Origin: Dyadobacter sp. 676
GTDB taxonomy: Bacteria > Bacteroidota > Bacteroidia > Cytophagales > Spirosomataceae
Reading direction: 5' to 3'
Assembly (NCBI RefSeq): GCF_040448675.1
Contig: NZ_CP159289.1
Span: 6,865,001 to 6,929,000 of the forward strand
DNA: 64,000 nt
Shown here: piece by piece, positions 3,084 through 26,138 of the stretch
Numbering within the stretch: position 1 is the stretch's first letter
How the letters are laid out: the number at the start of each line of letters is the position of its first letter
Program-made: the position numbers and the translations under genes
Notes under the pieces: generated by a model
The model's input: only the letters and a program-made list of their open reading frames with translations
What the model was told of the DNA's origin: nothing
Databases searched by the model: none

Positions 3084-5621
3084 CTACCTTCACATTCCCC
3101 GCCTCCCAAGACGGCAAGCTAAGACGTTACTTTGCTTTTGTCACTGCCCCTAAAACACCCCCAACTTACCCCTTCCGGGTGATTGAAACCCGATGGGAAG
3201 AGCCTCAACTTTGTCCTCCAAATAGTGCCTACCAACGCTTGCACTAAGGACATTTTCCAATTTTTTTTCCCGCGAAGCCTTGCGTATGAATCATCTTTAT
3301 CGATGGCTGGCCCTGAGTTGGCTAGCTACTACCTCCTATTTTGGCCTGGCACAGACTCCCACGGCCAATTACATTATCAGCCGCACCTACAAGCAGGCTG
3401 GCATTAACGAAAACCTAGCTGGCGCCAACTTTACTGCCACGGCCAATCAGGCTACCAGCCAGGTCTCCTACTTCGATGGGCTTGGCAAGCCGACCCAACA
3501 AGTTGCCGCTTTTGGAGCAGGGTCCAAGGCTGATATTGTCACAATAACCGAGTATGACGCGTTGCAACGACCCGTCAGGACATTTTTACCGACACCAATG
3601 AGCTCCAATGGTGGACAACTTCGGGCGGGGGCGGATGTTAAAACCGCAGCTAAGGATTATTACACCAGTTCTACAAAGGTGTCGGCTCCGATTGCAGCTA
3701 ATGCACAACCGGAAACGTTTTCAACTCAAACTTTTTACGAAAGTGCGCCGCTCAACCGAGTCACCGGAAGTAAAGCGCCGGGGGCTACCGGCAATTCCAC
3801 GCAGTTCCATGGTGTAAACGTAGCCGACGAAGTCAAATACTACCGCGCCGTTGGCGCGGCTCTTACCGATATTGAATTGAACAGCACATATGCGGCTGGC
3901 GAATTGACTTATACGCGTACTGTTGACGAGGCAGGTGGCAGCGTGACCCAGTACCAGGATCGGCTTGGCCGGATCGTTCTTAAGCGGACACTTACCAACA
4001 AAATTGTTCAGGGGGGTCCTTAAGGATGTTAATCTGGACACATACTATGCCTACGATGAGAAAAGTCAGCTTCGGGCTGTACTCCAACCTGGCTACCAAA
4101 GCGAAGCGGATTTGAGTCGGCACGCCTTCCTGTACCGTTACGACGAATACGGACGGGTGGTTGACAAAAAACTGCCTGGTAGCAACGCCGGCAAAATAGA
4201 TTATGTCGGTACCACGGATTTGCCCAAAAGCAGCACCGATGGCCGTGGACAGAAGTTTTATTATACCTACGACAACCTTAATCGTCAGATCGAGATGGGC
4301 CTGTGCAAAAACGGCAACTGCGACACCCCCCGAACCGCTGCTGAAGACCTACTACGACAACTATGATTTCACTCCTTTCCGGGCTTATGCTGCCGAGCCT
4401 GGCATGACGGGTGTTGCCTTTGCGCAAACCCCTACTGCCAACCGTATCGGTTTGAATACCGGCCAAGCTGCCAGGGTATTGCTACCTAGTGGCGAGTACG
4501 GCTCCTGGCTTCAAACAGTGATCTACTACGATGACAAGCAGCGGGTGATTCAGACATTACGCCAGTTGTACGGGTTCAGCAGCAATGCTTATGAGCGTGT
4601 GAGCTATCAGCTTGCCTTCGATGGCAAGCCCGAGCAGGAATGGACGACACAGGAAACCGGCAGCGTAACCTACAAGTTGGCCAAGACGTTTACCTACGAT
4701 CATGGTGACCGGCTGAGCAAAACCGAAGTGATACTTTATGAAGGAGGTGTCCCGAAAAAAACCTACACCCAGTCGGAACAGCTCTACAATGAGGTCGGCC
4801 AAGTGGGCACCAAGTCCCTGCACGCAGGAGTGCAAATTCTGGGTTACAAGTACACGCCACGCGGCTGGCTGGGGAATGAGCAAACCAACACCGGGCAGCC
4901 ATTTGCGTTAGGCCTTAATTACCAGGATAACGGTAACATCAACAGCCTGTCGTGGACAACCAAAAGCAATAGTGGCGGAATGAATTTAAGCTACGACAAG
5001 TCCAGCCGACTGACAGGGGCCACGGGTACTGGTAATTTCGCGAACTACGACGAATCGCCCATTAGCTACGACGCTAACGGAAACCTGGAAAGCCTGACTC
5101 GCAAGTACAATAACACGCCCATTGACCAATTAAGCTATCTGTATCACGGCAACCAATTACACCGTGTAAACGACTCGCAGGATAATCAGAGCCAGGCCGT
5201 TAAAGGATTTATCAACGGGGCCAACGCGGATGACGAGTTTGTCTACGACGGCAATGGAAACCTGGTCCGGGATTTTAACCGGGGTATAGGAAATAGTACT
5301 ACCGACGGGATCAATTACAACGTATTGAACCTACCCCGCCGCGTGGTGCGCAACACTCGCACGGTGCAGTACACATATGATGCCAATGGAGTAAAACTAA
5401 AAGAGTGAAGCCCCGGATAATGTCAATACATACTATGCGGGGACGTTCGAGTATCGCGCAGAGAACAGCTTGTTGCGCATTGGTGTAGAAGAAGGGCAGA
5501 TTGTCAAGGATGGAACAAGCTACCTGTCTCAATACTACCTTCGTGATCATCTGGGAAACGTGCGCTCGGTGCTGGATGAGACCGGCAACGTGATCCAGGA
5601 AACAGAGTACTACGCGTTTGG
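3084..5621 (+). repeat. 2.5 kb duplicated segment, copy A (partner at 11000-13524)
   Basis: The sequence from about 200 nt upstream of the RHS start codon to the YAFGL codons in the RHS core recurs at 11000-13524 in direct orientation. Upstream of and within the first 150 nt of the gene there are scattered substitutions. From about 3425 to 5621 I found no substitution by eye, only indels: three single extra bases here and a 10-nt loss in the other copy. Identity stops abruptly after the codons for YYAFG, which is where variable tips begin. Confidence 0.93.
3147..3179 (+). promoter_or_regulatory. C-rich upstream element, copy 1 (before RHS copy A)
   Basis: A 33-nt element of pattern CCCC-xAAA-CACCC-AACT-CCCC-GGG. 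It ends 106 nt before the ATG at 3286. Similar elements lie at 11064-11097, 14982-15012 and, on the minus strand, 9616-9649, always in the same orientation relative to the gene. Conserved order, orientation and distance suggest a regulator site or a promoter/leader element. Function is inferred. Confidence 0.55.
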
Positions 5622-6568
5622 GCTGGCGATACCTAGGACAGTAGGAATTAATAAGTATCTTTACAACGGTAAGGAGAAACAACCCGAGACCGAGTGGCTC
5701 GACTATGGAGCTCGGCAGTATGACCCGGCGATTAGCAGGTGGATGATCATCGATCCGCTAGCGGAATTAAGTATTGGTGTTTCTGGATACGCTTATGTTG
5801 AAAATGACCCAATAAGAAAGATTGATCTTTTTGGATTAATTGATATCAATAATGATGGAACTGATGATGGAATATCTTTACCGGAGGCCACGGTAACTGG
5901 GAAAAGGCCTGACCCTCTTTTTTGCGCAGTATGAACTCAATAGTTTAAAATACTCGAGTTCAAAACCGAGCCCATACAGCTGGTCGAGAAATGAAATTAA
6001 AACAGCAATTAAATATGAAGCTGCTGCTGCTGTATCATTGTATGCAGGTGGAGTTGTGGCAGGTGGAAGATTTGCAACTTGGCAAGCAGGGCCAAAAGCC
6101 ATTGCCCAACTTCGAAAATTAGCTGCTGCTAGACAGATTTTGCAAAAAACGTACTCGATGGTAGTAGCAAAAGGTGTTAGCCAACAGGCTTTATATGGAA
6201 AAGCCGGATTGAGTTTACTTGGACAAACGGTTGGAAATTTGTTGAAAGGAGAAATGAAAATAGATTTTGTAGGTCTGGCTGCGGACTTGTCTTTAACAAC
6301 AGGAGCGAGTTCATTAACTGGTGCGGTTGGAGAGATGGGTGTTGACTTATCTGAGGGGACGTTTTATAGCACTATTAATTCTCCCCAGGAAGGAGGCTTT
6401 AAATTAGCTACGGGTTTAGGATTTGGAACATTCGGTGGGAAGGCATCTGAAATGATGTCTGTGAATGGATTCTCCAAAGCTATGTCAGGAATGGTCGAAG
6501 GAATGGTGGAGGTATATAATCAGGTGATTGATACAATGGCGTCAAAAATACAGACACCAAATAAGTAG
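3286..6568 (+). pseudogene. RHS-repeat protein with DUF6443-type N-terminus, copy A, four +1 frame breaks
   Basis: A secreted RHS/YD-repeat protein related to polymorphic toxins. It begins with a signal peptide (MNHLYRWLALSWLATTSY...), a DUF6443-like region (SYFDGLGKPTQQVA, EYDALQRPVRTFLPT), YD repeats and the RHS core (YLYNGKEKQPETEWLDYG, YDPAISRWMIIDP, DLFGL). After the core comes a tip of about 250 residues, Gly/Ala-rich and hydrophobic, of no family I recognise. The frame is broken at four homopolymers: G6 at 4011-4016, C6 at 4326-4331, A4 at 5399-5402 and T6 at 5918-5923. Copy B has one base fewer at the first three. Removing one base at each gives a continuous 1092-codon frame. ATG 3286 is preferred over TTG 3280. 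These may be sequencing errors or real decay. Confidence 0.85.
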
Positions 6569-6576
6569 CCTGTCTA

Positions 6577-7002
6577 ATGAAACTAAACAAAATAAATCCC
6601 GCTCATATATTTTCTATAATTCTCTTAGGGCTTTGTGCTGTCTTTTATGTCAGAGATCGCATTCGGTTAAATAGTAAACTTGGGAAATGCTCGTTGTATA
6701 CAGTTGCAAAGGTTACTAGGATAAAGTATCGAAAATCACATGCGTGGATCGTATACGAGTATAAATTTAAAGGAAATGCTATTGAAAAAGATGACCCAGC
6801 TAATCCAGGTAGTTTCGATGAATGGCTAAATAAAGATATCCAGGAATTAGCGAATCGTAGATTTTGGGTTCAAATGAGTTGTGAAGACCCTAATTTCCAT
6901 AAATTACTATGGGATGTTGCTGTCCCTGACACTTTGCAGAATATACCGGTTAACGGATGGGAAAAATTACCCTTTGGGTTAAAGTCTTACAATAATGAAT
7001 AA
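6577..7002 (+). CDS. small membrane-anchored protein, candidate immunity gene for RHS tip A
   Basis: A 141-residue protein that I do not recognise. It has one N-terminal membrane segment (about 10-27, IFSIILLGLCAVFYV) followed by a soluble domain rich in charged and aromatic residues. It starts 8 nt after the RHS copy A stop, on the same strand and with the same lower GC content as the tip, unlike the GC-richer RHS core. The position of a small gene directly behind a variable RHS tip is typical of immunity genes in polymorphic toxin systems. That role is inferred from position alone. Confidence 0.6.
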   Translation: MKLNKINPAHIFSIILLGLCAVFYVRDRIRLNSKLGKCSLYTVAKVTRIKYRKSHAWIVYEYKFKGNAIEKDDPANPGSFDEWLNKDIQELANRRFWVQMSCEDPNFHKLLWDVAVPDTLQNIPVNGWEKLPFGLKSYNNE

Positions 7003-7073
7003 TCTTCAAGTGGAGTTGCGACCATTTATTGGAGGAATTTATTAGGGGCAATTCTAATAGCCATTAAATACGC

Positions 7074-7114
7074 AGCCCTGACGAGCTACACCAAATGCTT
7101 GTCAGGGCTTTTTG
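7074..7114 (+). terminator. rho-independent terminator after RHS copy A unit
   Basis: The arms AGCCCTGAC (7074-7082) and GTCAGGGCT (7101-7109) are perfectly complementary, with an 18-nt loop, and are followed by TTTTTG. It lies 71 nt after the stop of the small membrane protein and would end the RHS copy A transcript. Confidence 0.75.
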
Positions 7115-7236
7115 TTGTTAACCATAGAAATAACCCGTTGTGCGGTTGAAGTTTGAAGAGAAAAAGATTGTGCATTTTCTGAAATTCAGTAAGTTAATAT
7201 GGGTACCAAACCGTATTAACGTATCCGACCGATGAA

Positions 7237-7412
7237 CTACATATTGATTAAGCCGGGGATTTTGTTGAAGTTTTGTGGGTAAAGGCTTTCGATGTGCTTG
7301 TGGTTAATGGTGCAGATGTTTTGCAGGGTGTGTTTTAGCCAATGAAAGGGATTGACGCTGTGTTTTTTGCAGATTGCAAAAAAAGAATAGATCATGGCAG
7401 CACGTTGTAAAG
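7237..7412 (-). pseudogene. IS66-family transposase (TnpC) C-terminal remnant
   Basis: On the minus strand this encodes about 58 C-terminal residues of an IS66 TnpC, including RAAMIYSFFAICKKHSVNP and ending FNKIPGLINM followed by TAG. The same stretch occurs, with substitutions, at the end of the intact TnpC at 28850-29011 (RAAMIYSFFAICKKHNVNP). No IS66 coding continues upstream of about 7412, so this is a relic of an older and divergent copy. It was too short and broken to look like a gene at first sight. Confidence 0.8.
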
Positions 7413-7474
7413 GGAAAGCAACTGTTTCAATTCAACTGTATTTTTTTTAATTGTCGCCATGCCAATTTTATGTA

Positions 7475-8813
7475 GGGACTATCTCATTAACTGTGTAAAC
7501 TCCCAATCGGGGCTGGGCAGAGTTTAAAGCCTGACCCTATCTTCAAAAATAGTTAAAATCGGATCGCCGAAGCGACTGATTCAGGATCATGCCCCAATTC
7601 CGGATGGGCATGGTCCATTTTTTTGAAGCCTCTCTAAGGGCCAAATAAACAGACTTCAATACCGCATCATCATTGGGGAAAGAGAGTTTATTTTTTGTAT
7701 ATTTTCTGATTTTCCCATTCAAGTTTTCGATCAATTGGTGGTGTAAATGATCTGCCGGATTTCCAATGGGAAATCAAAAAACACAGTCAGTTCATCCCAG
7801 TTTTGTCGCCAGCTTTTGATGGCGTAGGAGTATTTGCTATTCCATTTTGATTCAAGACTTTCCAATGCGGCCAGGGCGGCTTGCCTGGTGGGAGCAGCAT
7901 AAATGTCCTTCATATCGCGGCTGAACTCTTTTTTATCCTTCCAGACCACATACCGGCAACTGTTGCGGATTTGATGAACCACACAGATCTGAGTTGCCGA
8001 TTCAGGGAACACAGACCGGATCGTTTGGGTGAAGCCGTTCAGATTGTCAGTGGCAGTGATCAGAATGTCCTGTAATCCACGGGCTTTCATGTCGGTTAAC
8101 ACGCTCATCCAGTAGGCTGCAGACTCATTCTTCCCCAGCCACATGCCCAAAACCTCCTTGTAGCCATCCCGTTTAAGTCCAACTGCGATGTATATCGTCT
8201 TATTGACGACTTTGCTGTTTTCACGCACTTTGAAAACGATTCCGTCCATCCAAACGATGAGGTACACAGCTTCCAACGGTCTATTCTGCCAGCTGATAAT
8301 ATCTTCGGCTATCCGGGAAGTAATGCGGCTAATTGTTGAAGCTGAAACATCAAAATTGTAAACATCCTTGATCTGCTCTTCAATGTCGGAGACGCTCATT
8401 TCCTTAGCGTACAACGAGACGATTACTTCTTCGATGCCATCGACCATATTCTCCCGCTTGGGGACGATCATTGGATTAAAACATGCATCGCGGTCGCGCG
8501 GAACGCTGATCTCGGATTCGCCGTAGCTGGTCCTGATTTTCTTTTTGCCGTAGCCATTACGGGAATTGCTGTTGGCCGACTGTTCGTGCTTGCCGTAGCC
8601 TAAATGCCCGTCCAACTCGCCTTCGAGCATCTTCTCGATGCCCCGCTTCTGCAACTGGCCCAGGAAGTCATTGAGCGCGTCGCGGCTCTTGAACTGCTTT
8701 AAAAAATCATCCGTTAAAAGATCCTCTGGTCTCATAAGCTGTGTTTTATTAAAAGTAAAAAATCGGGATCATAAACCCCGATTCTTCACTTACACAGTTT
8801 TTGAGACAGTGTC
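7475..8813 (-). mobile_element. IS256-family insertion sequence
   Basis: An element of about 1.34 kb whose ends share an imperfect inverted repeat. Reading inward, the left end carries ACTATCTCATTAACTGTGTAA and the right end ACTGTCTCAAAAACTGTGTAA, both followed a few bases later by AATCGGGG. A mutator-type transposase lies between them on the minus strand. I could not identify a clean 8-9 bp target duplication, so the exact outer limits are uncertain by several bases. Confidence 0.8.
7543..8735 (-). pseudogene. IS256-family (mutator) transposase, frameshifted
   Basis: The DDE transposase of the IS256 element. The 334-residue N-terminal part (from ATG 8735) contains the family landmarks WMDGI (first Asp), TATDNLNG (second Asp) and VVHQIRNS. 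It runs to IIYTTN and stops. The remaining 60-odd residues ([21 protein letters not shown], then [11 protein letters not shown]) lie in another frame from 7734 down. The usual junction of this family is IYTTNAIE. Here one base is missing in the AAT-TG-ATC stretch near 7735. Joined, the length of about 397 residues is normal for the family. The break is not in a homopolymer, so it is more likely a real inactivating mutation than the others in this window. Confidence 0.88.
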
Positions 8814-9159
8814 CATAAAGAATTGCAACAGGAACAAGCCATCTTATTATTTTACTACCATTTTGATTCTACTCTGGTTGCTGGTACTAGCCTGAGTTTG
8901 AACCGCCATGTTGCTCAATGTGAACCTTAAACAATTGCCCCGCAAAAAGGTCAGCCATGCATGGCCCTCATCCCGAATAGCTGCCGTATTGAGATGGAGG
9001 CTATACCCGGAACGATTTCAAACTCAAAATCAGGCAGTCATTTTTTTAACCATTGGCCTGGCGAATTGACCGAAACTTTACGCCGATAAAAATGTAATTC
9101 TTAAAAAACTTAAAGATATAATACTATTGAATTTCAGGTTTCGGATTCAATGAATATAG
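8814..9159. other. intergenic, no gene seen
   Basis: About 345 nt between the IS256 right end and the LuxR-type gene. I see no plausible reading frame, hairpin or repeat that I can name here. Confidence 0.5.
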
Positions 9160-9453
9160 CTAGAACGCATTCACTGTATCTCTATGTACACTAGCCCAAG
9201 ATTGCACTGTCCATAAGTACAACAATCGACGAAATTCAGTTTTTCCGCTCACCTCTAGTTTGCGAATGATATTCTTTCGGTGTCGTTTAACAGTTTCGAA
9301 AGCGATATTTAACGAATCAGCGATTTCCTTACAAGAGTAATCATTGAGGGTCATTAATAGTATCTTACGTTCTTGCGAAGTCAATTGCGCAAGAGCAGGA
9401 ACGTCGTTAGGTGAGGGTAAATTAAATCTTGGCGTTAAAGAATTGAAAATCAT
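9160..9453 (-). CDS. solo LuxR/GerE-type helix-turn-helix protein
   Basis: A 97-residue protein made almost only of a LuxR C-terminal DNA-binding domain (about 22-85). The four-helix pattern is clear: LTSQERKILLMTLND, then SCKEIADSLNIAFETVKRH (recognition helix), then RKNIIRKLEVSGKTEF. There is no autoinducer or receiver domain, so it may act with a partner or be constitutively active. It sits between the two RHS copies. A C-rich element like those before the RHS genes lies 162 nt upstream of its start in the same orientation. It is therefore a candidate regulator of that regulon, including itself; this is inference. A GerE domain encoded alone is short but not unusual in Bacteroidota. Confidence 0.85.
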   Translation of the reverse strand: MIFNSLTPRFNLPSPNDVPALAQLTSQERKILLMTLNDYSCKEIADSLNIAFETVKRHRKNIIRKLEVSGKTEFRRLLYLWTVQSWASVHRDTVNAF

Positions 9454-9615
9454 ACTCTTAAATATTTAATGTCTGTTAATAAGATGGAGTGGCGCGCTTA
9501 CATCTATTGGTTTGAATGCTATCAAAAGAATATTGTTTTAACGCTAACGTGTCCTAACGCGTATTATTAAAAATAGTTCTACAAAGCAAATTTATAAATG
9601 CGTATATTGAAATTA

Positions 9616-9649
9616 CCCCTAAGGGGCAGTTTAGGTGCAGTTTGGGGGC
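9616..9649 (-). promoter_or_regulatory. C-rich upstream element, copy 4 (before LuxR-type gene)
   Basis: Read on the minus strand this is CCCCC-AAAC-TGCACC-TAAACTG-CCCC-TTA-GGGG, which aligns with the plus-strand elements at 3147, 11064 and 14982. It lies 162 nt upstream of the LuxR-type start codon, farther than the 104-106 nt of the other three. The flanking CCCCTAAGGGG (9616-9626) is itself palindromic, which suits a dimeric DNA-binding protein. Confidence 0.5.
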
Positions 9650-9704
9650 AAAGTTGAAGTACTCCCTATTTTTAAGACCAGCGGTTGACTGTTTTTAATT
9701 AGAA

Positions 9705-10571
9705 TTAAGCAGCATTTAGGTAAAGGTTCATGGGTTTCCTGCGACCGATGCCTTGATATTTTCTGCAATTGTAATGCTGGACAAAGCGGGCAATCCCGTG
9801 ATAAAGGTCAAGGCTGTTTTTCTCAGGATTCAAATAGACGTACTTCTGTTTTATAGTTCGAAACCACCGCTCGATATGTGCGTTGTCGGTTGCTCTCCCT
9901 TTACCATCCATACTGATCCGGATCTTCAAATCACTTAATGTACTAACCCAATGCTCGCAGGTGTACTGTGCACCCTGATCGCTATTGATGATTTCCGGCT
10001 TGCCATGCCGAGATATTGTCGCGTGCAACAGCTCTGTCTGTGTTTCTTTTTCCAGACTATTAGATAGCTGCCAGCCGACAATATAACGGCTGTATAGATC
10101 CATAATGGCCGTCAGGTACATAAAGCCATGCTTCATGGGAATGTAGCTGATATCCAATGCCAAACCGCCCGGCGGCCCGGTTGGTTGGGGCGGTTGATCT
10201 CAAGATTCCTAAGCAAATACGGATGAATGTATTTCGCTTTTCCCAGGCGGCTAAGGTTACGTTTGGCGGGGCGGCCCATGCCGATAAATCGGCTCAATGG
10301 TCATTTTCCGTAGCAGACTCCGAATGCGTTTGACATTATAATTCATCCCTTTTTCTGCCAGCTCGTCTTGCATACCAAGCACGCCCAAAGTGGGATCGGA
10401 CAAGAATATTTTGTCCATTACTTCCATCAGTGCCAAATTCTCTTCCGCGTCGGCCGATTTTTCACCAGCAAGCGGATAATACAACTGACTGCGGTTGACA
10501 CTAAGAATCTGGGCTTGCCGTCGAATACTCAACGGATGACCATTGTCTATCAATGCCATGCGCTCCTTCAT
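9705..10571 (-). pseudogene. IS3-family transposase orfB (integrase core), broken
   Basis: The first part, 10571-10257, carries the HTH_21-like region (SIRRQAQILSVNRSQLYYP, then LGVLGMQDELAEKGMNYNVKRI). The second part, 10163-9705, carries the rve/DDE core (ALDISYIPMKHGFMYLTAIMD, NSDQGAQYTC, TDNAHIERWFRTIKQ). Between them the expected linker (NLSRLGKAKYIHPYLLRNLEINRPNQP) is readable only with frame changes near 10255 and near 10165-10180, where a CCGCCCGGCGGCC stretch replaces the usual codons. Catalytic residues are visible, but as it stands the gene cannot give one protein. Confidence 0.82.
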
Positions 10572-10584
10572 AGACCGGCTTTTT

Positions 10585-10869
10585 TCAAGCTTTTTTTAAA
10601 AAGTCGTTCTCCACCTGCAATTGGCCGATCTGCTTAAAGAGGTTGTCAATGTCAACTGATTCCTCGTCTTTGGACGGCTCATCTCCGAAAGCTTTTTCCG
10701 CTCGCTCCAAAAATTCCCGTTTCCAGGCAGATACCTGGGTTGGATGAATCGCCAGGCGACCCTGCTCAAATCTGGTCGCCAATTCGCTCAACGACTTTCG
10801 TTCTTTCAAGGCTTCAACAGCCACCATTGCCTTGAATTTTGCTGTGAATTTCCTCCGGTTTTGTTTCAT
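10585..10869 (-). CDS. IS3-family transposase orfA
   Basis: A 94-residue HTH_Tnp_1 type protein (KFTAKFKAMVAVEALKERK, then HPTQVSAWKREFLERAEKAF) with a C-terminal coiled-coil stretch ending ENDFLKKA. It binds IS ends and is normally fused to orfB by -1 frameshifting. The frame is intact. Confidence 0.85.
   Translation of the reverse strand: MKQNRRKFTAKFKAMVAVEALKERKSLSELATRFEQGRLAIHPTQVSAWKREFLERAEKAFGDEPSKDEESVDIDNLFKQIGQLQVENDFLKKA
10590..10600 (-). other. programmed -1 frameshift slippery site of IS3 element
   Basis: On the minus strand the end of orfA reads TTTTTAAAAAAAGC followed by TGA. An A6/A7-G slippery run directly before the orfA stop is the usual site where IS3-family ribosomes slip by -1 to make the OrfAB transposase. 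Confidence 0.6.
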
Positions 10870-10999
10870 TGTCTCATCGGTTTAATGTCAAGTTACTAAA
10901 CTTAACGATGGCCTCAATTTCGGCGAGTATTACAAATTACCTTAAAGCAGGAGTTGTAATATGACTAACGATTTAGCTTTTAATAGGCTAATACATTTC

Positions 11000-13524
11000 C
11001 TACCTTCACATTCCCCCGCCTCCCAAGACGGCAAGCTAAGACGTTACTTTGCTTTTGTCACTGCCCCTAAAACACCCCCCAACTTGCCCCTTTCGGGTGA
11101 TTGAAACCCGACGCGGAGAACCTCAACTTTGTCCTCCAAATAGTGCCTGCCAACGCTTGCACTGAGGACATTTTCCAAATTTTTTCCGCGAAGCCTTGCG
11201 TATGAATCATCTTTATCGATGGCTGGCCCTGAGTTGGCTAGCTACTACCTCCTATTTTAGCCTGGCACAGACTCCCACGGCCAATTACATTATCAGCCGC
11301 ACCTATAAGCAGGCTGGCATTAACGAAAACCTGACTGGCACCAACTTTACTGCCACGGCCAATCAGGCTACCAGCCAGGTCTCCTACTTCGATGGGCTTG
11401 GCAAGCCGACCCAACAAGTTGCCGCTTTTGGAGCAGGGTCCAAGGCTGATATTGTCACAATAACCGAGTATGACGCGTTGCAACGACCCGTCAGGACATT
11501 TTTACCGACACCAATGGTGGACAACTTCGGGCGGGGGCGGATGTTAAAACCGCAGCTAAGGATTATTACACCAGTTCTACAAAGGTGTCGGCTCCGATTG
11601 CAGCTAATGCACAACCGGAAACGTTTTCAACTCAAACTTTTTACGAAAGTGCGCCGCTCAACCGAGTCACCGGAAGTAAAGCGCCGGGGGCTACCGGCAA
11701 TTCCACGCAGTTCCATGGTGTAAACGTAGCCGACGAAGTCAAATACTACCGCGCCGTTGGCGCGGCTCTTACCGATATTGAATTGAACAGCACATATGCG
11801 GCTGGCGAATTGACTTATACGCGTACTGTTGACGAGGCAGGTGGCAGCGTGACCCAGTACCAGGATCGGCTTGGCCGGATCGTTCTTAAGCGGACACTTA
11901 CCAACAAAATTGTTCAGGGGGTCCTTAAGGATGTTAATCTGGACACATACTATGCCTACGATGAGAAAAGTCAGCTTCGGGCTGTACTCCAACCTGGCTA
12001 CCAAAGCGAAGCGGATTTGAGTCGGCACGCCTTCCTGTACCGTTACGACGAATACGGACGGGTGGTTGACAAAAAACTGCCTGGTAGCAACGCCGGCAAA
12101 ATAGATTATGTCGGTACCACGGATTTGCCCAAAAGCAGCACCGATGGCCGTGGACAGAAGTTTTATTATACCTACGACAACCTTAATCGTCAGATCGAGA
12201 TGGGCCTGTGCAAAAACGGCAACTGCGACACCCCCGAACCGCTGCTGAAGACCTACTACGACAACTATGATTTCACTCCTTTCCGGGCTTATGCTGCCGA
12301 GCCTGGCATGACGGGTGTTGCCTTTGCGCAAACCCCTACTGCCAACCGTATCGGTTTGAATACCGGCCAAGCTGCCAGGGTATTGCTACCTAGTGGCGAG
12401 TACGGCTCCTGGCTTCAAACAGTGATCTACTACGATGACAAGCAGCGGGTGATTCAGACATTACGCCAGTTGTACGGGTTCAGCAGCAATGCTTATGAGC
12501 GTGTGAGCTATCAGCTTGCCTTCGATGGCAAGCCCGAGCAGGAATGGACGACACAGGAAACCGGCAGCGTAACCTACAAGTTGGCCAAGACGTTTACCTA
12601 CGATCATGGTGACCGGCTGAGCAAAACCGAAGTGATACTTTATGAAGGAGGTGTCCCGAAAAAAACCTACACCCAGTCGGAACAGCTCTACAATGAGGTC
12701 GGCCAAGTGGGCACCAAGTCCCTGCACGCAGGAGTGCAAATTCTGGGTTACAAGTACACGCCACGCGGCTGGCTGGGGAATGAGCAAACCAACACCGGGC
12801 AGCCATTTGCGTTAGGCCTTAATTACCAGGATAACGGTAACATCAACAGCCTGTCGTGGACAACCAAAAGCAATAGTGGCGGAATGAATTTAAGCTACGA
12901 CAAGTCCAGCCGACTGACAGGGGCCACGGGTACTGGTAATTTCGCGAACTACGACGAATCGCCCATTAGCTACGACGCTAACGGAAACCTGGAAAGCCTG
13001 ACTCGCAAGTACAATAACACGCCCATTGACCAATTAAGCTATCTGTATCACGGCAACCAATTACACCGTGTAAACGACTCGCAGGATAATCAGAGCCAGG
13101 CCGTTAAAGGATTTATCAACGGGGCCAACGCGGATGACGAGTTTGTCTACGACGGCAATGGAAACCTGGTCCGGGATTTTAACCGGGGTATAGGAAATAG
13201 TACTACCGACGGGATCAATTACAACGTATTGAACCTACCCCGCCGCGTGGTGCGCAACACTCGCACGGTGCAGTACACATATGATGCCAATGGAGTAAAA
13301 CTAAAGAGTGAAGCCCCGGATAATGTCAATACATACTATGCGGGGACGTTCGAGTATCGCGCAGAGAACAGCTTGTTGCGCATTGGTGTAGAAGAAGGGC
13401 AGATTGTCAAGGATGGAACAAGCTACCTGTCTCAATACTACCTTCGTGATCATCTGGGAAACGTGCGCTCGGTGCTGGATGAGACCGGCAACGTGATCCA
13501 GGAAACAGAGTACTACGCGTTTGG
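11000..13524 (+). repeat. 2.5 kb duplicated segment, copy B (partner at 3084-5621)
   Basis: Direct repeat of 3084-5621. It starts at CTACCTTCACATTCC, about 200 nt before the RHS start, and ends within the YYAFG codons. It lacks 10 nt (AGCTCCAATG) at about 11516 that copy A has at 3600-3609. In copy A the lost block is bounded by two CCAATG repeats, which is the signature of replication slippage. Confidence 0.93.
11064..11097 (+). promoter_or_regulatory. C-rich upstream element, copy 2 (before RHS copy B)
   Basis: CCCC-TAAAACACC-CCCC-AACTTG-CCCC-TTT-CGGG, ending 104 nt before the ATG at 11202. It belongs to the 2.5 kb duplication, so its likeness to copy 1 is partly by descent. The independent copies at 14982 and 9616 are the stronger evidence for function. 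Confidence 0.5.
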
Positions 13525-14398
13525 CTTACCCATCCAGCGAACTGGGTCTGATAAAAACAAGTATCTTTACAACGGGAAGGAGAAACAGCCTGAAACGGAA
13601 TGGCTGGATTATGGTTTTAGAATGTATGATCCTTCGATCGGGCGATGGATGACCGAAGATCCGATGACAGAGAGTCAAGAAAGCTGGTCTACCTACCAAT
13701 ACGTGTACAATAACCCGCTAAGATTTTCCGACTTATTTGGAATGGTGGGAGATACTACAAATGTAGACTCCAATAAGCCGATCAATAAAGATGACATAGT
13801 TGTATTCGTTGATGGATCCACAGCCCAGGCGAGTGCAGGTGATGCTACTGTAAAAGGGACAAAAAATAGCGACGCAGAGAATTTATTTTACGACATATGG
13901 CACGGCAAAGGGGAAAGAGGTACCATTGGAAATATTATTGACTTTTCCGAGAAACACTATTCTATTCTAACAGACATAGTAGATTCCTACGACAAACCTT
14001 TTGGATCTGGGTCAAAAGTAGTAGTTTCGCAATTTGCCTATAACCTCACTAAGACGAAAAGGCTAGTACACCCTTTGAATGGAAGGTTACTTAAAGCAGG
14101 TCAAGTAGCTAAATTACTAAAAAGTTCGGGCAAAATATCAAAATTTCTCGGACCTGCTGGCAACGTGTTAGGAATAGGCAAAATAGGGTATGACTTGATG
14201 AATAATACTTGGGACGCCTCTACCGTAATTGATGTTGCCATAATAGCTGGAATTGCCACCGCAGGAGCGCTGGCGTCACCAGCAGTGGTCGCAGGATTAG
14301 CAACAGGTGCCGCGGTATATGGGGTGCTGGATTATACCTTCGACATAAACGATAAAATTGATAGTTCTTTTGGGCGCAACGCAGATAGGTGGAAATAA
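11202..14398 (+). pseudogene. RHS-repeat protein with DUF6443-type N-terminus, copy B, 10-nt deletion near the start
   Basis: The second RHS/YD-repeat protein. Signal peptide and DUF6443 start are as in copy A, but the frame breaks at about 11516 because of a 10-nt deletion between CCAATG repeats. The rest (from about 11520, 930 residues) is open: YD repeats, RHS core (YLYNGKEKQPETEWLDYG, MYDPSIGRWMTEDPM, DLFGM) and a tip of about 215 residues unrelated to that of copy A. The tip has a glycine/alanine-rich hydrophobic stretch (AIIAGIATAGALASPAVVAG), as in pre-toxin or pore-like segments, and ends SSFGRNADRWK. Restoring the 10 nt gives 1068 codons in frame. A GTG at 11585 could start a truncated product without a signal peptide. 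Confidence 0.85.
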
Positions 14399-14400
14399 CA

Positions 14401-14793
14401 ATGAAAATATTCGAAATATTTATTTGCACTGGAATGATTGGAGACAAATCTTCACCAGAATTAAGGGCGGTCAATGCAGCAAAATGGACTTTCTCTTACG
14501 TTCTCTCATTGATTTATTTTGTCATTCTAAAATTGCTTTGGATTTCTTTTGGGATAAAGATCGGAGAGATTATGTATTACTTACTACTATTCTCAACTGT
14601 CTTTATTTCGTGGAGCTTACTTAATAGCTATTATTACAATAAAGTCAACAAAGCAAAAAAAATAGTTGAGAGCAACTATTCAAAAGGTTCGATAAAGCTT
14701 TGGGGATACATCGGAGGATTTATTGTTTTTATTGCACCACTATGCTTGCTTATTATAGGCATTCCATTAGTCAGCAACTACAAAAACTGGTAA
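14401..14793 (+). CDS. small membrane protein, candidate immunity gene for RHS tip B
   Basis: A 130-residue protein with about three hydrophobic segments (near 25-45, 50-70 and 100-125, the last being YIGGFIVFIAPLCLLIIGIPL). I do not recognise the family. The ATG at 14401 is 2 nt after the RHS copy B stop, which implies translational coupling. Like the gene behind copy A it is AT-rich and tip-specific: the two small proteins share no similarity, just as the two tips do not. This fits an immunity protein acting in the membrane, but the role rests on position only. Confidence 0.65.
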   Translation: MKIFEIFICTGMIGDKSSPELRAVNAAKWTFSYVLSLIYFVILKLLWISFGIKIGEIMYYLLLFSTVFISWSLLNSYYYNKVNKAKKIVESNYSKGSIKLWGYIGGFIVFIAPLCLLIIGIPLVSNYKNW

Positions 14794-14862: not shown

Positions 14863-14981
14863 TATCACCCCTACCTATTCCATTTTCTTCTTTATTGATA
14901 AACGGCAGCATCGCTTTTAACTTAACGGCCACTCTGCCACAGGTAGTCCTTCGCCAATTGAATCCCCAAAAAAGGCGATCC

Positions 14982-15012
14982 CCCCAAAATACACCCAAAC
15001 TAACCCCAAGGG
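14982..15012 (+). promoter_or_regulatory. C-rich upstream element, copy 3 (before SdrD-like gene)
   Basis: CCCC-AAAAT-ACACCC-AAAC-TAA-CCCC-AA-GGG. It ends 105 nt before the ATG at 15118, nearly the same distance as in the two RHS genes. The surrounding sequence is otherwise unlike the RHS leader, so this likeness is not explained by the duplication. Confidence 0.55.
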
Positions 15013-15117
15013 AGCATTTTATCCCACGTCCTAATGCACCAATTTTGTTGGAGTAGAATCCCTTTTTCCAACAAACTGCTTTTCAATAATCTTTCTCTAA
15101 GCATTTCTGTGTTTTTT

Positions 15118-17565
15118 ATGAAACAGCTGTATTTATTAATCCTGGTTAACCTATGTCTTGCTACTCAGAATCCTCTGTTTAGCCAAGTTTCAGGCTATGT
15201 CCATCGGTATTCATCTTCCCCACTTTCAAATGACAGGCCCAGAGGAGGTTTTATGAAAGTGGGCGTCAGGGCGTATGATGCCCAAGGTAAATTTCTTACT
15301 TCCGCAACTTCCGATGCAATGGGGTATTACCAGCTAGACGTGCCTGCCGGTCAGCGCGTTCGGCTTGAATTCGACCAACTACCGCAAGGTTTTGGCCCTG
15401 CACCCGGTCAAAGCCGCACAAAGTTCCTTACGAGCCCTGCTTCGATCAATTTGGCCTTATGGCAACCGGGTCAATTTGTTGGTAGCCACCCCCGGGCCGT
15501 CCAGTCGCTCTATACGACGAGCAATTCAAAAAAGGCGGGAGAACCGCAGGCCGCTTTGGTAAGTTACCAGGCCGGCGATTCGACTACCGGGGAAGCAATG
15601 ACACTGGCAAATTCCGCTCAGGTAGGTTCTTTATGGGGCATCGCCTACGATCGCAGCAGCAGGCGGCTGTTCGCCACCGCGTTTGCAAAGCGCCATAGCC
15701 CGATAGGTCCCCTGGGGCTTGGAGGCATCTACGTTGTTAATCCTGAAAAACAGGATGTAAAGCCATTTGTTGATTTATCAGCATTAGGTATTCCAACGGC
15801 ACCGGCTAATTACCTGCGCGAAGTAGCCAGCGAAGAAAGCGCGTTCAGTCACGACTCCCTGATGTTTTCGTTCGTCGGTAAAACCGGCTTGGGCGGGATA
15901 GATGTTTCCGACGATGGTCGAGAGCTTTGGGTGACTAATTTATTCGATCGCAAGCTCTATAAAATTGCCCTTTCTTCTGCGGAACGATCACCTGCGGCGA
16001 CCGACATTACGGGTTACTCCATTCCCTCAGTGGGCCGTAACGGAGTAACAAGGCCTTTTGCCGTGAAATTTTATGGGGGCAAAGTCTACGTAGGAGTTGT
16101 CAGCGATGCGACGGGTGAAAAAGCGACGGACGCTGACCTGACTGCAACCGTATTGGCTTTTGATCCTGCTCGCCAGAAATTTGAGACGGTGTTCAGTATG
16201 GCCCTTAACTACACCAGAGGCACGCTCGACTATGGTGTCTCCGGATGGCGCCCGTGGACTGATGATTATCAAAAAGCTGTTTTGGCAAACAACAACGGGT
16301 GGATGATTTATCCTCAACCAATTCTTGCCGACATTGAATTTGACACTGATGGATCTATGATTATAGGCCTGATGGATCGGTTAGGCCATCAGACGGGTGA
16401 GGGACAACTCTACCGGCCCAAAGGCATCCGCCAACTTCAACAAGTTCGTGGTCTGGCCGGCGGCGATGTGCTCCGTATTGCCTACCGTGGTAACGAGCGG
16501 GCAGCGAAGCGATATGAATTAGAGCATAATGGTCAGGCTGGCGACCGGATATCCGCCGGCCAGGGCAATGGAGAAGGCCCCCAAGGCGGTGAATTTTACT
16601 TCGACGACGCCTTCAAAGCCAGCGGGATAACCTGGCACCAGGAAACTGCGGCGGGTGGATTAGCACTGCTCCCAGACCAGGACCTGCTGCTGGTAGCGGC
16701 CAGGGAACCTGAGCAGGAAGGGTATTTGGGCGGAGGCGTCAAATGGTTCGATAACAGTACTGGCGCGGCCGTAAAAGGCCTATCGCTGCTATCTAAAAAT
16801 CAAATTAATCCGTTTGGTAAAGCTAATAATGTAGGGGATATAGAATTGATCACCGAAGTACCTCCTACCGAGATAGGTGACCGCATCTGGCAGGATTGTG
16901 ATGAAGATGGCATTCAGGACGCGGAGGAAACCGCTTTGGCTGATATAAATGTAGGGTTGTATCAAGGCGATACTTTGCTGGCCGCTGTCAGGACTGATAG
17001 CCTCGGGCATTACGCCTTTAATGATACGTTGGTGTCAGGCGGTATTAAAGCCAGAACGGCATACGAGCTTCGGGTCGCTGTCAAGCAGCCTGGATACGCC
17101 CAACTAGAACCAACGGCTAGCCTGCAAGGTGGCAATCGAGAGATCGACAGTGACGCCATGTTAATTAACAACTATGCCGTTATCAAATTCACTACAAATG
17201 CTCCTGGCCAGAATATCCATGATTTAGACTTTGGGTTTCGCTGCTTGGATAAACCTCAGACAGCCGCCAGATTAAATGCCGAAGAACAGGCTGACACGCT
17301 GGATTCCGAGGATCGTGGGCTGGTTGTGTCACCAAATCCTGCATCGGATTACGTAGTCATTCGTTACCGCAGTAAAAACAATCAGGGAAGCATTCAACTC
17401 CTGATAACGGACATTAACGGACGCCCTTTAATGGCACAGCGCGTCGAATTGAATGAAGGGCGCTACCAAACAAGATTTAACCTCACACATCAACCGCCTG
17501 GCAGTTACATCATCGCGATTCAGGACGGCAGCATGAAAGTCTCCGAAACAATTATCAAGCAGTAA
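15118..17565 (+). CDS. secreted SdrD-B-like repeat protein with type IX sorting domain
   Basis: An 815-residue surface or secreted protein. The signal peptide starts MKQLYLLILVNLCLATQN. A carboxypeptidase-like/SdrD-type fold follows (about 25-115), then a large propeller-like region (GSLWGIAYDRSSRRLFATAF; IDVSDDGRELWVTNLFDRK). An SdrD B-like domain sits at about 585-710 (IGDRIWQDCDEDGIQDAEE, DFGFRC). A Por_Secre_tail sorting domain closes it (about 738-815, VSPNPASDYVVI, PGSYIIAIQDG), so it is expected to leave by the type IX system and be anchored outside. I chose ATG 15118 because it begins the signal peptide and gives the same spacing to the C-rich element as the RHS genes. The giant gene follows 47 nt later. 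Confidence 0.85.
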   Translation: MKQLYLLILVNLCLATQNPLFSQVSGYVHRYSSSPLSNDRPRGGFMKVGVRAYDAQGKFLTSATSDAMGYYQLDVPAGQRVRLEFDQLPQGFGPAPGQSRTKFLTSPASINLALWQPGQFVGSHPRAVQSLYTTSNSKKAGEPQAALVSYQAGDSTTGEAMTLANSAQVGSLWGIAYDRSSRRLFATAFAKRHSPIGPLGLGGIYVVNPEKQDVKPFVDLSALGIPTAPANYLREVASEESAFSHDSLMFSFVGKTGLGGIDVSDDGRELWVTNLFDRKLYKIALSSAERSPAATDITGYSIPSVGRNGVTRPFAVKFYGGKVYVGVVSDATGEKATDADLTATVLAFDPARQKFETVFSMALNYTRGTLDYGVSGWRPWTDDYQKAVLANNNGWMIYPQPILADIEFDTDGSMIIGLMDRLGHQTGEGQLYRPKGIRQLQQVRGLAGGDVLRIAYRGNERAAKRYELEHNGQAGDRISAGQGNGEGPQGGEFYFDDAFKASGITWHQETAAGGLALLPDQDLLLVAAREPEQEGYLGGGVKWFDNSTGAAVKGLSLLSKNQINPFGKANNVGDIELITEVPPTEIGDRIWQDCDEDGIQDAEETALADINVGLYQGDTLLAAVRTDSLGHYAFNDTLVSGGIKARTAYELRVAVKQPGYAQLEPTASLQGGNREIDSDAMLINNYAVIKFTTNAPGQNIHDLDFGFRCLDKPQTAARLNAEEQADTLDSEDRGLVVSPNPASDYVVIRYRSKNNQGSIQLLITDINGRPLMAQRVELNEGRYQTRFNLTHQPPGSYIIAIQDGSMKVSETIIKQ

Positions 17566-17612
17566 ACCAATCCCAATTCTTATTTAATCCTCACGTCTTT
17601 TATTTATCTATT

Positions 17613-20600
17613 ATGAAAGCCTTCATTGTGCCTTCTAGGGATTCCTATGTTTTTTCGAAAACCAGGATAAGGCAATTTATTATTTATCTGAATATTTTCC
17701 TCCTGCTTTGGGTGGGGTCCGGCAGCATTTCATTGGCGCAATTTCAAAAGCCAGACATAGGAATGCCTACTCCGAATGCAGCCAGTATCGGCTTATATGG
17801 AGAGGTCCCGGTTTCACTTTATACAGGTACACCCAACATAGACATTCCTATTTACACGATTGATGAAGGAAAAATTAAAGTTCCTATCAGTCTGAGTTAC
17901 CATGCATCAGGAGTAAGAGTTAATCAGCATCCTGGATGGGTTGGATTAAACTGGAATTTAAATGCCGGAGGCGCTATAACCAGGGTTGTAAAAGGATTCC
18001 ACGACGAAACTGCTTATACTGCCTGGTTAAGTTCTCCTGAAAATTCATATAGGCATTTAGGATACTACTACAAATCGTCATATTTGAATAGCTCAAACTG
18101 GGATACTAAGGAATTCATGAAGACGCTTTTCGAGCAAAAAATGTCGACTGCACCACCAGGACAGTTTAGTAAGCTATACGCAGATCTACAACCAGATGAA
18201 TTCAACTTTAACTTTCTAGGATATAGCGGGAAGTTTTACAGAGACTATGATGGTAGCTGGGTAGTTGGTAGTGAGACGTCCATGAAAGTACAATTGCTGG
18301 CAAACGAATTTACCAAACCAGGTACTGAATTAAAGTATGGTGAAGATGAGGTGACTAGCAATTACTTCTTTTATAGCTACAATGGTTTTATTATAACCAC
18401 GCCTGATGGAACTAAATACGAGTTTGGAGGAAATACCAGTGCGATAGAATTCAGTTTGCCGTTTTTTGTTGATGATAGTAAAGATCTTTCTTCAAGCTCA
18501 TCCCCGGGAGCAGGCTGGATGGCAGATACCTGGTATCTAAAAAAGATAACAACAACGGAAGGAAAAATAGTCGAATTTAACTATGAAATAGCTCCCTTGA
18601 AGGAAGGTAAATTTATTGCTTCATTTTACCGTTCACTTGCAAACAAAACTACTTCCGGATCGGGCAGGATCAGAGGCTTCTTGGGTGCAGGTGTATCTTA
18701 CCAATGTGCATCTTACAATACGGCATATCTGGACTCAACAAATCACTACAACGGAACCTTGCAAAGACCCACGTATCTAAAAGAGATCAAGTTTCAAAAG
18801 GGAAAGATTATTTTTGATACTGAAACAACAAATGAGTTACCTTACAAACCTCATGTTTTTAGCGCCAAATACTGGACACTTCGAAATAACCAAGCCGAAC
18901 CTCTTACCGGACCCTTGCCAGTTGCTTATAAATATTATCTTACAGGTGGCGATCTTACAGAAATGCAAAATAAGTTTTTTTGTTTCAATTGTGAGTTTTA
19001 TTCAGTCAGAGCTGAGTTGGCCAACAACATTGTAGGAAATTTGAAATGGCGAAAGCTTAAAGCAATTACCATCCAGGCAAATGACGCCATTGCTACTAAT
19101 AAATTCTCATTCGACTACGTAGACAATCCGAACTCGCGACTTTATTTAACGGCCATTAACAAAATTTCAACTATTGACGCGAACTGCAAGGAACTTTATA
19201 AGTTTTTCTACCACCACGACACGAATAATCCATTACCGGATTATCTTGATAAAGCTGACCAAACAGATCATTGGGGCTTTTTTAATAAAAATACATATAA
19301 TTTAAATTCGTTTCCGACCAACTACGAAAACCACAAAAACGCCTCTAATCAGCTGACGGTTTTACAAGAGGGAACGCTGTCAAAAATAGAATTTCCTACC
19401 GGCGGCACAAGTGAATTTGAGTATGAACCTCATGATGCCTATAAGTACCAGAAGTTCAATTTAGATGGAAGTGTTACCTTGGATAATTCGACTTCAAGTG
19501 TGGGAGGAATTCGGATAAAAAAAATCAAAATCAATGATGGCACCCAGGTAAAAGCTAAGGAGTATGAATATAAATTTGTTGACGGCACGGAAAAATCCAG
19601 TGGTATTCTCAACGGAAAACCTCAATATATTTATGACGTAACACTAAAAGTTGATGAGATGACTGGCGCGACCGGTACATATAGTGCTCATTATGTGTCG
19701 TCACAAAATACATTGCCTCTATCAGCCAATTCATCTGGCTCTCACATTGGGTACCGGCAGGTAAAAGAAAAGTTCGGGGATGGCAGCTATAAGGTTCATC
19801 AATTTACGAACTATGAATCCAGTGATGGATTGCATTTGGATGAAGCAATTACCAATAATCAAAGAATTGGAGATGGAGCCAGCTTGTACGAGGAAAAAAA
19901 TAGTCTTGCTCTGGAAAGAGGAAAACTTCTAAGTGAAAGTTACTATTCAAAAGACAACCTTTTGGTTAGCAAAAGAAGTTTTACTTATCAACGATACAAT
20001 TCTCGTTTTGCAAGAGGGCTCTCAGCAAATTTATTCGCCATATGCGGAGATGAAAGGATTAAAGTAGTTCAGGCGTATGCATACAAAAATTATGCCTTTC
20101 AATACTTTCCTCAAAAGGTAGAAAATTACACCTACGATCAGGCTGACACCGCTAAATTCACTTTGGATTTAGTTACTTATAGGTACAATGGTTTGGGACT
20201 ACAAAGTGAAGCCAGTAATACCAGAAGCGGAAAAACTATCAGAACGCTCAATAAATACGTATATGACTATGAAACCACCACCGGTTCTGATGAAGCGTCT
20301 CAGAGTATTTTAAGCATGAAAAACCTGGGCATGGACGGAGTGCTGGTAGAACAGCAAGTCTGGAACGATGAAAATGGCACAGATGCAATGGCTAGTGGAA
20401 ACGTTAACCTTTTTAGGAGATACAACGCTGCTTCGGGTTATAACAATGTGCAAGTTGAAAGAGTTTACAGCTTCGCTAACCCGGTGCCTCAGACAGTTGT
20501 ACCTTTATCGCTCATCAGTTCAGGGTTATTTAAATACAATTCCGGGTACACAAATCTAGTGGGTGATTTTGGATCCGATAATGCAAATGGATACACTCCG

Positions 20601-25655: not shown

Positions 25656-25662
25656 GAAATTA

Positions 25663-25712
25663 TTTATAAAAGCTGGAAGTGAAAATGGTTTTTCACTTCC
25701 AGCTTTTATAAA
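25663..25712 (+). terminator. long perfect hairpin after the giant gene
   Basis: A 23-bp perfect stem (25663-25685 with 25690-25712; core AGCTGGAAGTGAAAA) with a 4-nt loop, 7 nt after the stop codon. Arms begin and end in A/T runs, so it can work as a bidirectional terminator. The 230 nt beyond it hold nothing I can identify. Confidence 0.8.
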
Positions 25713-25946
25713 TATCGAATTCAGCGTGATATCCAATTCAACTTGGCTAACCTCGAATCAATTCCCAGCCATTTGCCCGCAGATACCCCCAAGGAAATCC
25801 CCGATGCATATCGAATATGATCTCTTTTTGACATGCTTGCACCTTTCGAGCAACCAAGTCCCTCTAACCCAAAAGATGCCACTTCCCTGAAATGAAATTA
25901 GAGCATACTCCTAAATAGCCAATCAAGATGAAGGTATATCCTAAGT

Positions 25947-26138
25947 TTAGCTTCGTTGCCATATCCAGTTCCAGGCAAGCTGTTTCCAATTTTTTATCAT
26001 TGCCCCTTGGTTATTCTTCCACAACTTGGTTTTGAAGTGACAAAAGAACGCCTGGGCGTCAGTCTCAGGTACCCCTTGTTGCGAAAAATAAACCCTGACC
26101 TGAACTTCGTCAGGGGACACTGGTGTCCAAAACCAGTT
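25947..26138 (-). pseudogene. C-terminal gene remnant cut by the IS3 element
   Basis: About 60 codons ending at TAA 25947, with the pattern EVQVRVYFSQQGVPETDAQ, FFCHFKTKLW and IKNWKQLAWNWI. This 'YF..KG....AEKFF..F....W......MKNWK.A..NWI' pattern recurs at the C-terminus of small Bacteroidota DNA-binding or replication-type proteins. I know it by pattern only and give no function. The upstream part is lost at the left edge of the IS3 element near 26140. Confidence 0.45.

What the first reader, a model, noticed from the sequence alone, without database searches (positions are those of the whole stretch)
3286..14793. Twin RHS/DUF6443 proteins with interchangeable tips and tip-specific downstream genes
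Two direct copies share a near-identical leader and core (3084-5621 and 11000-13524). Within the codons YYAFG the identity stops, and each copy goes on with its own version of the RHS core end, an unrelated AT-rich tip (about 250 and 215 residues) and an unrelated small membrane gene 8 or 2 nt after the stop. This is the layout of polymorphic toxin systems, where tips are swapped by recombination at the core and an immunity gene follows. Neither tip matches a toxin family I know, so these may be new toxin/immunity pairs, perhaps membrane-acting because the tips have Gly/Ala-rich hydrophobic runs.
Basis: partly seen in the sequence, partly recalled or inferred. Interest (0 to 1): 0.82.

Follow-up and report, generated by a model that had tools for sequence, protein, structure and literature searches.

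The report
Duplicated bacterial toxins with swappable tips
This bacterium carries two copies of what looks like a secreted bacterial-warfare protein that share one body but have different ends, each followed by a small likely antidote gene; the arrangement is a known kind with new end parts, and both copies look broken as sequenced.

Summary
The layout is real. Two copies of a DUF6443/RHS gene share leader and core (14 substitutions in the first 341 nt, none in the next 2,195) and part within the YYAFG codons into different RHS ends, tips and small membrane genes. The polymorphic-toxin reading is well supported: cores 92% identical to copy 2 in two other genomes carry tips without detectable likeness; two cores 44% identical carry the same tip (85%) and neighbour; of 28 tips at this position, 3 match known competition-toxin families above cut-off and one more weakly. 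Tip 1 occurs in 4 of 199 other family genomes, behind different cores, with the same small gene next in 4 of 4. Yet that gene mostly stands alone (16 of 20 loci examined), as orphan immunity genes do. The body of tip 2 has no confirmed relative in 221 other family genomes, and its pairing rests on position. Membrane action is untested. New toxin/immunity families in a known kind of system.

The parts
3084..3285 (+). leader of copy 1, shared with 11000-11201
   Evidence: more diverged than the core
3286..4023 (+). copy 1, first open piece: signal-peptide-like start (by eye) and DUF6443
   Evidence: PF20041 E 2.9e-25, on 3280-4023
3965..4366 (+). copy 1 core, second open piece in another frame
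   Evidence: RHS_repeat, below cut-off
4203..5408 (+). copy 1 core, third open piece in another frame
   Evidence: RHS_repeat, below cut-off
5470..5934 (+). copy 1, fourth open piece: core end, YYAFG at 5608, Rhs_assc_core (5608-5838), first residues of the tip
5839..6568 (+). tip 1 (about 242 codons; frame interrupted near 5920; piece 5921-6568 used for searches)
   Evidence: no Pfam, NCBIfam or PADLOC family
6577..7002 (+). small gene 1, putative immunity protein: one long helix, membrane-span-like, plus a small beta domain
   Evidence: follows tip 1 in 4 of 4 other genomes with the tip
7543..8735 (-). Mutator-type transposase in two frames, between the copies
   Evidence: PF00872
9105..9650 (.). 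block that in G209 and G207 lies just upstream of the like core; holds a LuxR-type HTH ORF (9160-9453, -)
   Evidence: 84% identity; GerE
9705..10869 (-). insertion-element genes (HTH_Tnp_1, HTH_21, rve) in several pieces
11000..11201 (+). leader of copy 2
11196..11723 (+). copy 2, first open piece: start, signal-peptide-like region (by eye), early part
11585..14398 (+). copy 2, main open piece (937 aa): rest of the core, YYAFG at 13511, Rhs_assc_core (13511-13744), tip 2
13745..14398 (+). tip 2 (about 217 codons) with a hydrophobic Gly/Ala-rich stretch near its end
   Evidence: no confirmed relative of its body in 221 other family genomes
14401..14793 (+). small gene 2, multi-span membrane protein, putative immunity gene by position
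15034..17565 (+). neighbour with SdrD_B domains and a T9SS-type sorting tail; 89% like DNA follows the like core in G209
   Evidence: (Por_Secre_tail)

Best explanation
The locus is a polymorphic-toxin locus of the RHS kind in a Spirosomataceae bacterium (probably Dyadobacter). A Sec-exported DUF6443/RHS protein forms a shell. Its core end carries two conserved Asp residues, as in Rhs proteins that cut their tip free, and the C-terminal tip is the toxic part, delivered to neighbouring bacteria; the gene right behind the tip makes the producer immune. Copy 2 stands at the site shared with a relative, so copy 1 is most likely the added copy, with another tip/immunity unit. Recombination within the core kept the two cores identical and is the likely route by which tip/immunity units are exchanged at YYAFG. 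Shown by sequence: core identity, junction, exchange among relatives, tip-1/small-gene-1 linkage, toxin domains at the tip position in some relatives. Inferred: export, cutting, toxicity, immunity, membrane target, order of duplication. As sequenced neither copy can make the full protein, so in this strain the locus is either decayed (a store of tip/immunity units with open small genes) or partly misread by sequencing.
For: Core without substitutions over 2,195 nt beside 14 in the 341 nt before it. Copy 2's flanks match the like locus of G209, and its upstream block that of G207. Copy 2's core is 92% identical to G209 and to G207 over its last 300 aa, with no tip match at E 1e-4; G207 and G184 cores are 44% identical but tips 85% and neighbours 55%, both with DUF1493. 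Tip 1 in G015, G045, G073, G121 sits behind carriers of different size, or a core-end cassette, with the same small gene next in 4 of 4; cores of own copy 2, G015 and G121 are 29-53% identical. DUF6443/RHS genes in G126 and G878 have relatives of small gene 1 right behind them. Of 28 tails all match Rhs_assc_core and both Asp are invariant; one tail each matches Cytotoxic, Ntox33 and Colicin-DNase/WHH above cut-off, and one DNase_NucA_NucB weakly. Core-end/tip cassettes in tandem in G199.
Against: Both copies are interrupted as sequenced. Small gene 1 mostly occurs without the tip in the family (16 of 20 loci examined). The body of tip 2 has no confirmed relative and small gene 2 only one full-length relative, not tip-linked. 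Twenty-three or more of the 28 tails match no toxin family, and one neighbour is a transposase rather than a small immunity-type gene. The tip-1 model was unusable (pLDDT 33), so no activity can be assigned. The hydrophobic-tip/membrane-neighbour link was not significant.
Confidence: 0.8

Rival explanations
1. Decayed duplicate: both copies are real pseudogenes and only the small genes are still used, protecting against kin that carry working copies. (A rival on the state of the locus, not on its kind.)
For: Several private frame changes, transposase genes in pieces between the copies; small genes open; small-gene-1 relatives often stand alone.
Against: In the shared core the copies differ by length changes without one substitution in 2,195 nt, unusual for ageing pseudogenes; the genome shows signs of extra frameshifts elsewhere.
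Confidence: 0.4
2. Sequencing or assembly error: the frames of copy 1 are open in the living strain. This concerns copy 1 only; the short deletion in copy 2 would still be real. (A rival on the state of the locus, not on its kind.)
For: Completeness 95.3% for a single-contig genome while 45 of 47 other genus genomes have 99-100%; 41 of 218 against 23 of 206 neighbouring same-strand ORF pairs overlap in 400 kb samples of own genome and G151 (Fisher p 0.03); 1 of 16 against 0 of 12 like genes split.
Against: Small samples from one comparison genome; one of the four interruptions of copy 1 is in its unique tip, not in the repeat; copy 2 shows no such changes in the same stretch.
Confidence: 0.5
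3. Small gene 1 is not an immunity gene but a widespread small membrane protein with another role that happens to lie behind the tip.
For: Found in 23 of 199 other family genomes and 36 of 390 order genomes (own included), mostly away from RHS genes where examined; at some lone loci the gene upstream looks ordinary by eye.
Against: Follows tip 1 in 4 of 4 genomes, on several branches of its own tree, follows DUF6443/RHS genes in G126 and G878, and forms tandem copies.
Confidence: 0.12
4. The RHS copies are structural surface proteins with variable, non-toxic ends.
For: Signal-peptide-like start (by eye) and a neighbour with a T9SS-type tail; most of the 28 tails match no toxin family.
Against: Known competition-toxin domains at the same position in 3 of 28 tails above cut-off and one weakly; one of 26 neighbours has a SUKH (SMI1_KNR4) match, E 0.0011.
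Confidence: 0.06

Closest known systems
Rhs toxins with exchangeable C-terminal tips and orphan tip/immunity modules (Salmonella, Koskiniemi 2014, PMC3967940: abstract and passages read)
   Same: Conserved core, swapped tip plus immunity gene, recombination through the core, locus duplication proposed before exchange
   Different: Here the extra unit is a whole second core copy; DUF6443 at the start; both copies interrupted
Serratia Rhs1 locus with orphan immunity genes (PMC10539506: passages read)
   Same: Immunity genes occurring without their toxin; tip/immunity exchange at a conserved core
   Different: Tips there are NADases delivered by T6SS; tip 1 has no known activity, and the lone small genes examined here are not near an RHS core
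TANFOR polymorphic toxins of Bacteroidetes (PMC7073777: outline, section 6 and passages read)
   Same: Bacteroidota, Sec signal, variable toxic ends with downstream immunity, T9SS-type proteins as neighbours
   Different: No TANFOR match was reported here; the carrier is DUF6443 plus RHS
Tse5/Tsi5 of Pseudomonas, an Rhs pore-forming tip with an immunity protein of two predicted membrane spans (PMC9637101: passages read)
   Same: Works-like model for tip 2 and small gene 2: hydrophobic tip released from an RHS protein, membrane-embedded protector
   Different: No sequence relation shown; T6SS delivery there; pore formation untested here
Polymorphic toxin survey of Zhang et al. 2012 (PMC3482391: passages read)
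   Same: General plan: trafficking part, RHS repeats, toxin tip, immunity gene, polyimmunity loci
   Different: No mention of Dyadobacter or Spirosoma in the held 300,000 of 357,715 characters; tips 1 and 2 match no Pfam family

Membership tests
RHS polymorphic toxin | RHS repeat-associated core domain before the tip | tested here: met
   TIGR03696 at both copies
RHS polymorphic toxin | Like cores with unlike tips | tested here: met
   Own copies; own copy 2 against G209 and G207. A faint likeness of tip 2 to the G209 tip is not excluded (4 of 300 shuffles as high)
RHS polymorphic toxin | Same tip behind unlike cores | tested here: met
   Tip 1: own, G015, G121; G207/G184 pair. Not shown for tip 2
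RHS polymorphic toxin | Immunity gene directly behind the tip and bound to it | tested here: inconclusive
   Tip 1: 4 of 4 genomes, but the gene also stands alone in 16 of 20 loci examined. Tip 2: position only
RHS polymorphic toxin | Conserved Asp pair at the core end for tip release | tested here: met
   D31 and D55 of the tails invariant in 28 of 28 tails picked by a core-end motif; cleavage itself not tested
RHS polymorphic toxin | Known toxin domains at the tip position of relatives | tested here: met
   3 of 28 tails above cut-off, one more at E 0.0013
RHS polymorphic toxin | Tip toxic, neighbour protective | not testable with these tools
   Needs expression tests
RHS polymorphic toxin | Intact reading frame | tested here: not met
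   Both copies interrupted as sequenced
T6SS Rhs effector (Tse5-like) | PAAR or VgrG-type start | tested here: not met
   Only DUF6443 found on the first piece of copy 1; the start looks like a Sec signal by eye. A T6SS TssC gene exists elsewhere in the genome
TANFOR polymorphic toxin | TANFOR domain | tested here: inconclusive
   No match in Pfam or NCBIfam; I did not check that either library holds a TANFOR model
T9SS cargo | C-terminal sorting domain on the toxin itself | tested here: not met
   None on the tips; present on the neighbour 15034-17565; GldL present in the genome
OB-fold domain (small gene 1) | Five-stranded OB barrel | tested here: inconclusive

The most novel reading that the evidence does not exclude
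Small gene 1 belongs to an undescribed membrane-anchored immunity family, spread over Cytophagales mostly as orphan and tandem copies, that guards against a set of Gly/Ala-rich helical tips which dissipate the inner membrane; these tips ride on Sec-exported DUF6443/RHS shells that leave the cell through T9SS rather than T6SS, a route proposed for TANFOR toxins but left as a hypothesis in the passages I read.
Probability: 0.15. Interest if true: 0.62.

Novelty: new member of a known kind. Interest (0 to 1): 0.36.

Why it matters
It suggests that DUF6443 is the entry part of polymorphic RHS toxins in Bacteroidota (no paper in the held library names DUF6443), adds a toxin-tip family (tip 1) and an immunity-like family (small gene 1) that matched no model in Pfam, NCBIfam or PADLOC, and offers a clean natural case of a core kept identical while tips differ. 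If confirmed at the bench it would widen the list of bacterial competition toxins, not, so far as shown, the list of mechanisms.

Tried and rejected
Protein search with tip 2 as a region of copy 2: no hit among 4,116 candidates. In one search a longer piece also met G158 at E 4e-4 over residues 15-115, with stops; the tip body alone did not. Protein search with the G015 tip: 1 hit, itself, among 7,948 candidates. Tip-1 profile over the phylum: 1 of 395 genomes, own only; genome-contig scan: one locus, Telluribacter humicola. Tip-1 structure: mean pLDDT 33.2, dropped, no fold search made. PDB by sequence: tip-1 profile one hit at E 0.25, tip 2 none. PADLOC none. PHROGs: small gene 1 E 0.028, tip 2 E 0.0044 (a DNA-binding family), G015 tip E 1.6e-4 over 20 residues; none accepted. 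hhalign of tip 1 with the tips of G878, G876 and G864: probability 0.4% and 5%, so I do not call them one family. Tip 2 against the G209 tip: BLAST nothing; local score reached by 4 of 300 shuffles, a hint only; the two small genes do not match (270 of 300 shuffles as high). A link between hydrophobic tips and membrane neighbours: rho 0.28, p 0.17; Fisher p 0.22 (28 tails, 2 without usable neighbour dropped). NCBIfam Gpos_tandem_5TM for small gene 2 (17 bits, cut-off 35): rejected. Tandem-repeat finder on 17000-26500: none up to period 500. Tails were picked by a core-end motif from 50 loci and the window: 30 found, two of L137 dropped because the motif was not at a core end, leaving 28 from 22 loci. 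The other 28 loci gave none, some because they repeat the same places, many because their core end is spelled otherwise, so the 28 are a sample.


Full report
WHAT IS THERE. The two direct copies exist as described. The leaders start at about 3084 and 11000, and likeness without substitutions runs into the last codon of YYAFG (which starts at 5608 and 13511). In 3084-3424 there are 14 substitutions in 341 nt; in 3425-5619 there are none in 2,195 nt, only length changes (Fisher p 5e-13). The first stretch has thus diverged more than the core, which points to recent gene conversion between the cores. After the junction each copy has its own RHS core end, tip and small gene, and the G+C content falls from 50-53% to about 36-45%. 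DUF6443 (PF20041, E 2.9e-25) and Rhs_assc_core (TIGR03696) were found; the whole genome has these two core ends and one more elsewhere.

Neither copy is an open gene as sequenced. Copy 1 falls into five pieces in different frames: three breaks in the core, each at a length change in a short run of one base relative to copy 2, and one in the tip, its place inferred from the frames and from relatives. Copy 2 has a short deletion near its 5' end that puts the signal-peptide-like start in another frame from the rest. In an alignment with G209 and G207 each break of the shared core is private to one copy, and G207 has a frame change of its own. Whether this is decay or sequencing error stays open. 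Hints of error: completeness of 95.3% in a single-contig genome while 45 of 47 other genus genomes have 99-100%; 41 of 218 against 23 of 206 overlapping neighbouring ORF pairs (Fisher p 0.03); 1 of 16 against 0 of 12 like genes split; no substitutions beside the breaks. Hints of decay: a break in the unique tip, transposase genes in pieces between the copies, and a deletion in copy 2 that simple run-length error does not explain.

WHERE THE COPIES CAME FROM. In G209 one copy of the like core is flanked upstream by a block like 9105-9650 (84%) and downstream by DNA like 14962-16838 (89%); G207 has the same upstream block. Copy 2 is thus at the shared site and copy 1 is probably the added one. 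The own genome carries transposase genes between the copies.

TIP EXCHANGE. The core search met 25 of 48 genus genomes, own included. From 50 loci and the window I collected 28 core-end/tip tails by a motif rule (26 from the genus, own copy 2 among them, 2 from other genera; 28 loci gave none). Over its last 300 core residues own copy 2 is 92% identical to G209 and to G207, yet the three tips show no match to one another at E 1e-4. G207 and G184 are 44% identical in the core but 85% in the tip and 55% in the neighbour, and both neighbours match DUF1493. G199 has several core-end/tip cassettes in tandem behind full RHS genes. Of the 28 tails all match Rhs_assc_core. One tail matches Cytotoxic (E 2e-21), one Ntox33 (3e-19), one both Colicin-DNase (7e-8) and WHH (3e-7), all above cut-off; one matches DNase_NucA_NucB weakly (1e-3), one LysM, two DUF6973; the other tails match nothing listed. 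Among 26 neighbours are single matches to SMI1_KNR4 (E 0.0011), DUF4279 and DUF7683, and one neighbour matches a transposase. The tip position of this family is thus a toxin position in at least some members.

TIP 2 AND SMALL GENE 2. The body of tip 2 has no confirmed relative in 221 other family genomes; 3 match only its first 42 residues, a shared linker, and a weak match in G158 with a longer query was not repeated. A protein search found none. Its last part holds the strongest hydrophobic stretch of the 28 tails. Small gene 2 has at least two membrane spans by a hydropathy count; its one full-length relative, in G170 (39%), stands behind an ORF that looks PpiC-like by eye, without an RHS core in the stretch fetched. 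Two other matches are partial or weak (G175, G187). Pairing is inferred from position.

MECHANISM. Inferred: export by Sec into the periplasm, an RHS shell around the tip, release by the Asp pair at the core end (invariant in 28 of 28 tails; for Tse5 a like motif is described as a putative aspartyl protease that frees the tip, PMC9637101 passages), delivery to neighbours, and protection of the producer by the small gene. The export route is unknown: the genome has both T6SS TssC and T9SS GldL. The signal-like start (by eye) and a neighbour with a T9SS-type tail favour T9SS, as was hypothesised for TANFOR toxins (PMC7073777). Lone immunity genes and duplication before tip exchange have precedents (PMC10539506 and PMC3967940, passages).

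TAXONOMY. G015 is Telluribacter humicola by the matching record, listed as Spirosomataceae, and of the same family as the window's genome. I take the genus to be Dyadobacter because G151's size equals what I recall for D. fermentans; no call names it.

VERDICT. A known kind of system with new parts; most doubtful are intactness and the second pair. Literature checks: DUF6443 in 0 papers; Dyadobacter with Rhs and toxin in 1, judged by its listing only; Rhs with type IX secretion, antibacterial toxin and Bacteroidetes in 3, of which I read parts of PMC7073777.

Noticed in passing
window 17613-25655: A 2680-aa protein with a secreted-type start (by eye), five F5/8-type domain stretches (near-identical units about 807 nt apart) and a weak GDSL-like match; like DNA lies upstream of the RHS gene in L119 and a similar ORF, by eye, in L118, so it may be a partner of the toxin.
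   Followed up: partly
L116 6744-7061 and L117 (G207, G184): A tip shared by G207 and G184 is followed by a DUF1493 protein in both, not one of the usual immunity families.
   Followed up: partly
L120 and L121 (G199): Arrays of core-end/tip cassettes with small genes behind a main RHS gene; a Cytotoxic (colicin E3-type) match in one cassette of each.
   Followed up: partly
L197, L198, L205, L206, L211: Tandem copies of relatives of small gene 1; in all but L211 behind unnamed Gly/Ala-rich ORFs in which Pfam found no RHS domain where scanned (L197, L198): candidates for more toxin families.
   Followed up: partly
window 45031-45876 and 45809-46351: A PQQ-type beta-propeller gene in two overlapping frames, another possible sequencing or decay break.
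   Followed up: no
G000:C1:3655216-3655482 (L044, L134): A third Rhs_assc_core elsewhere in the genome.
   Followed up: no
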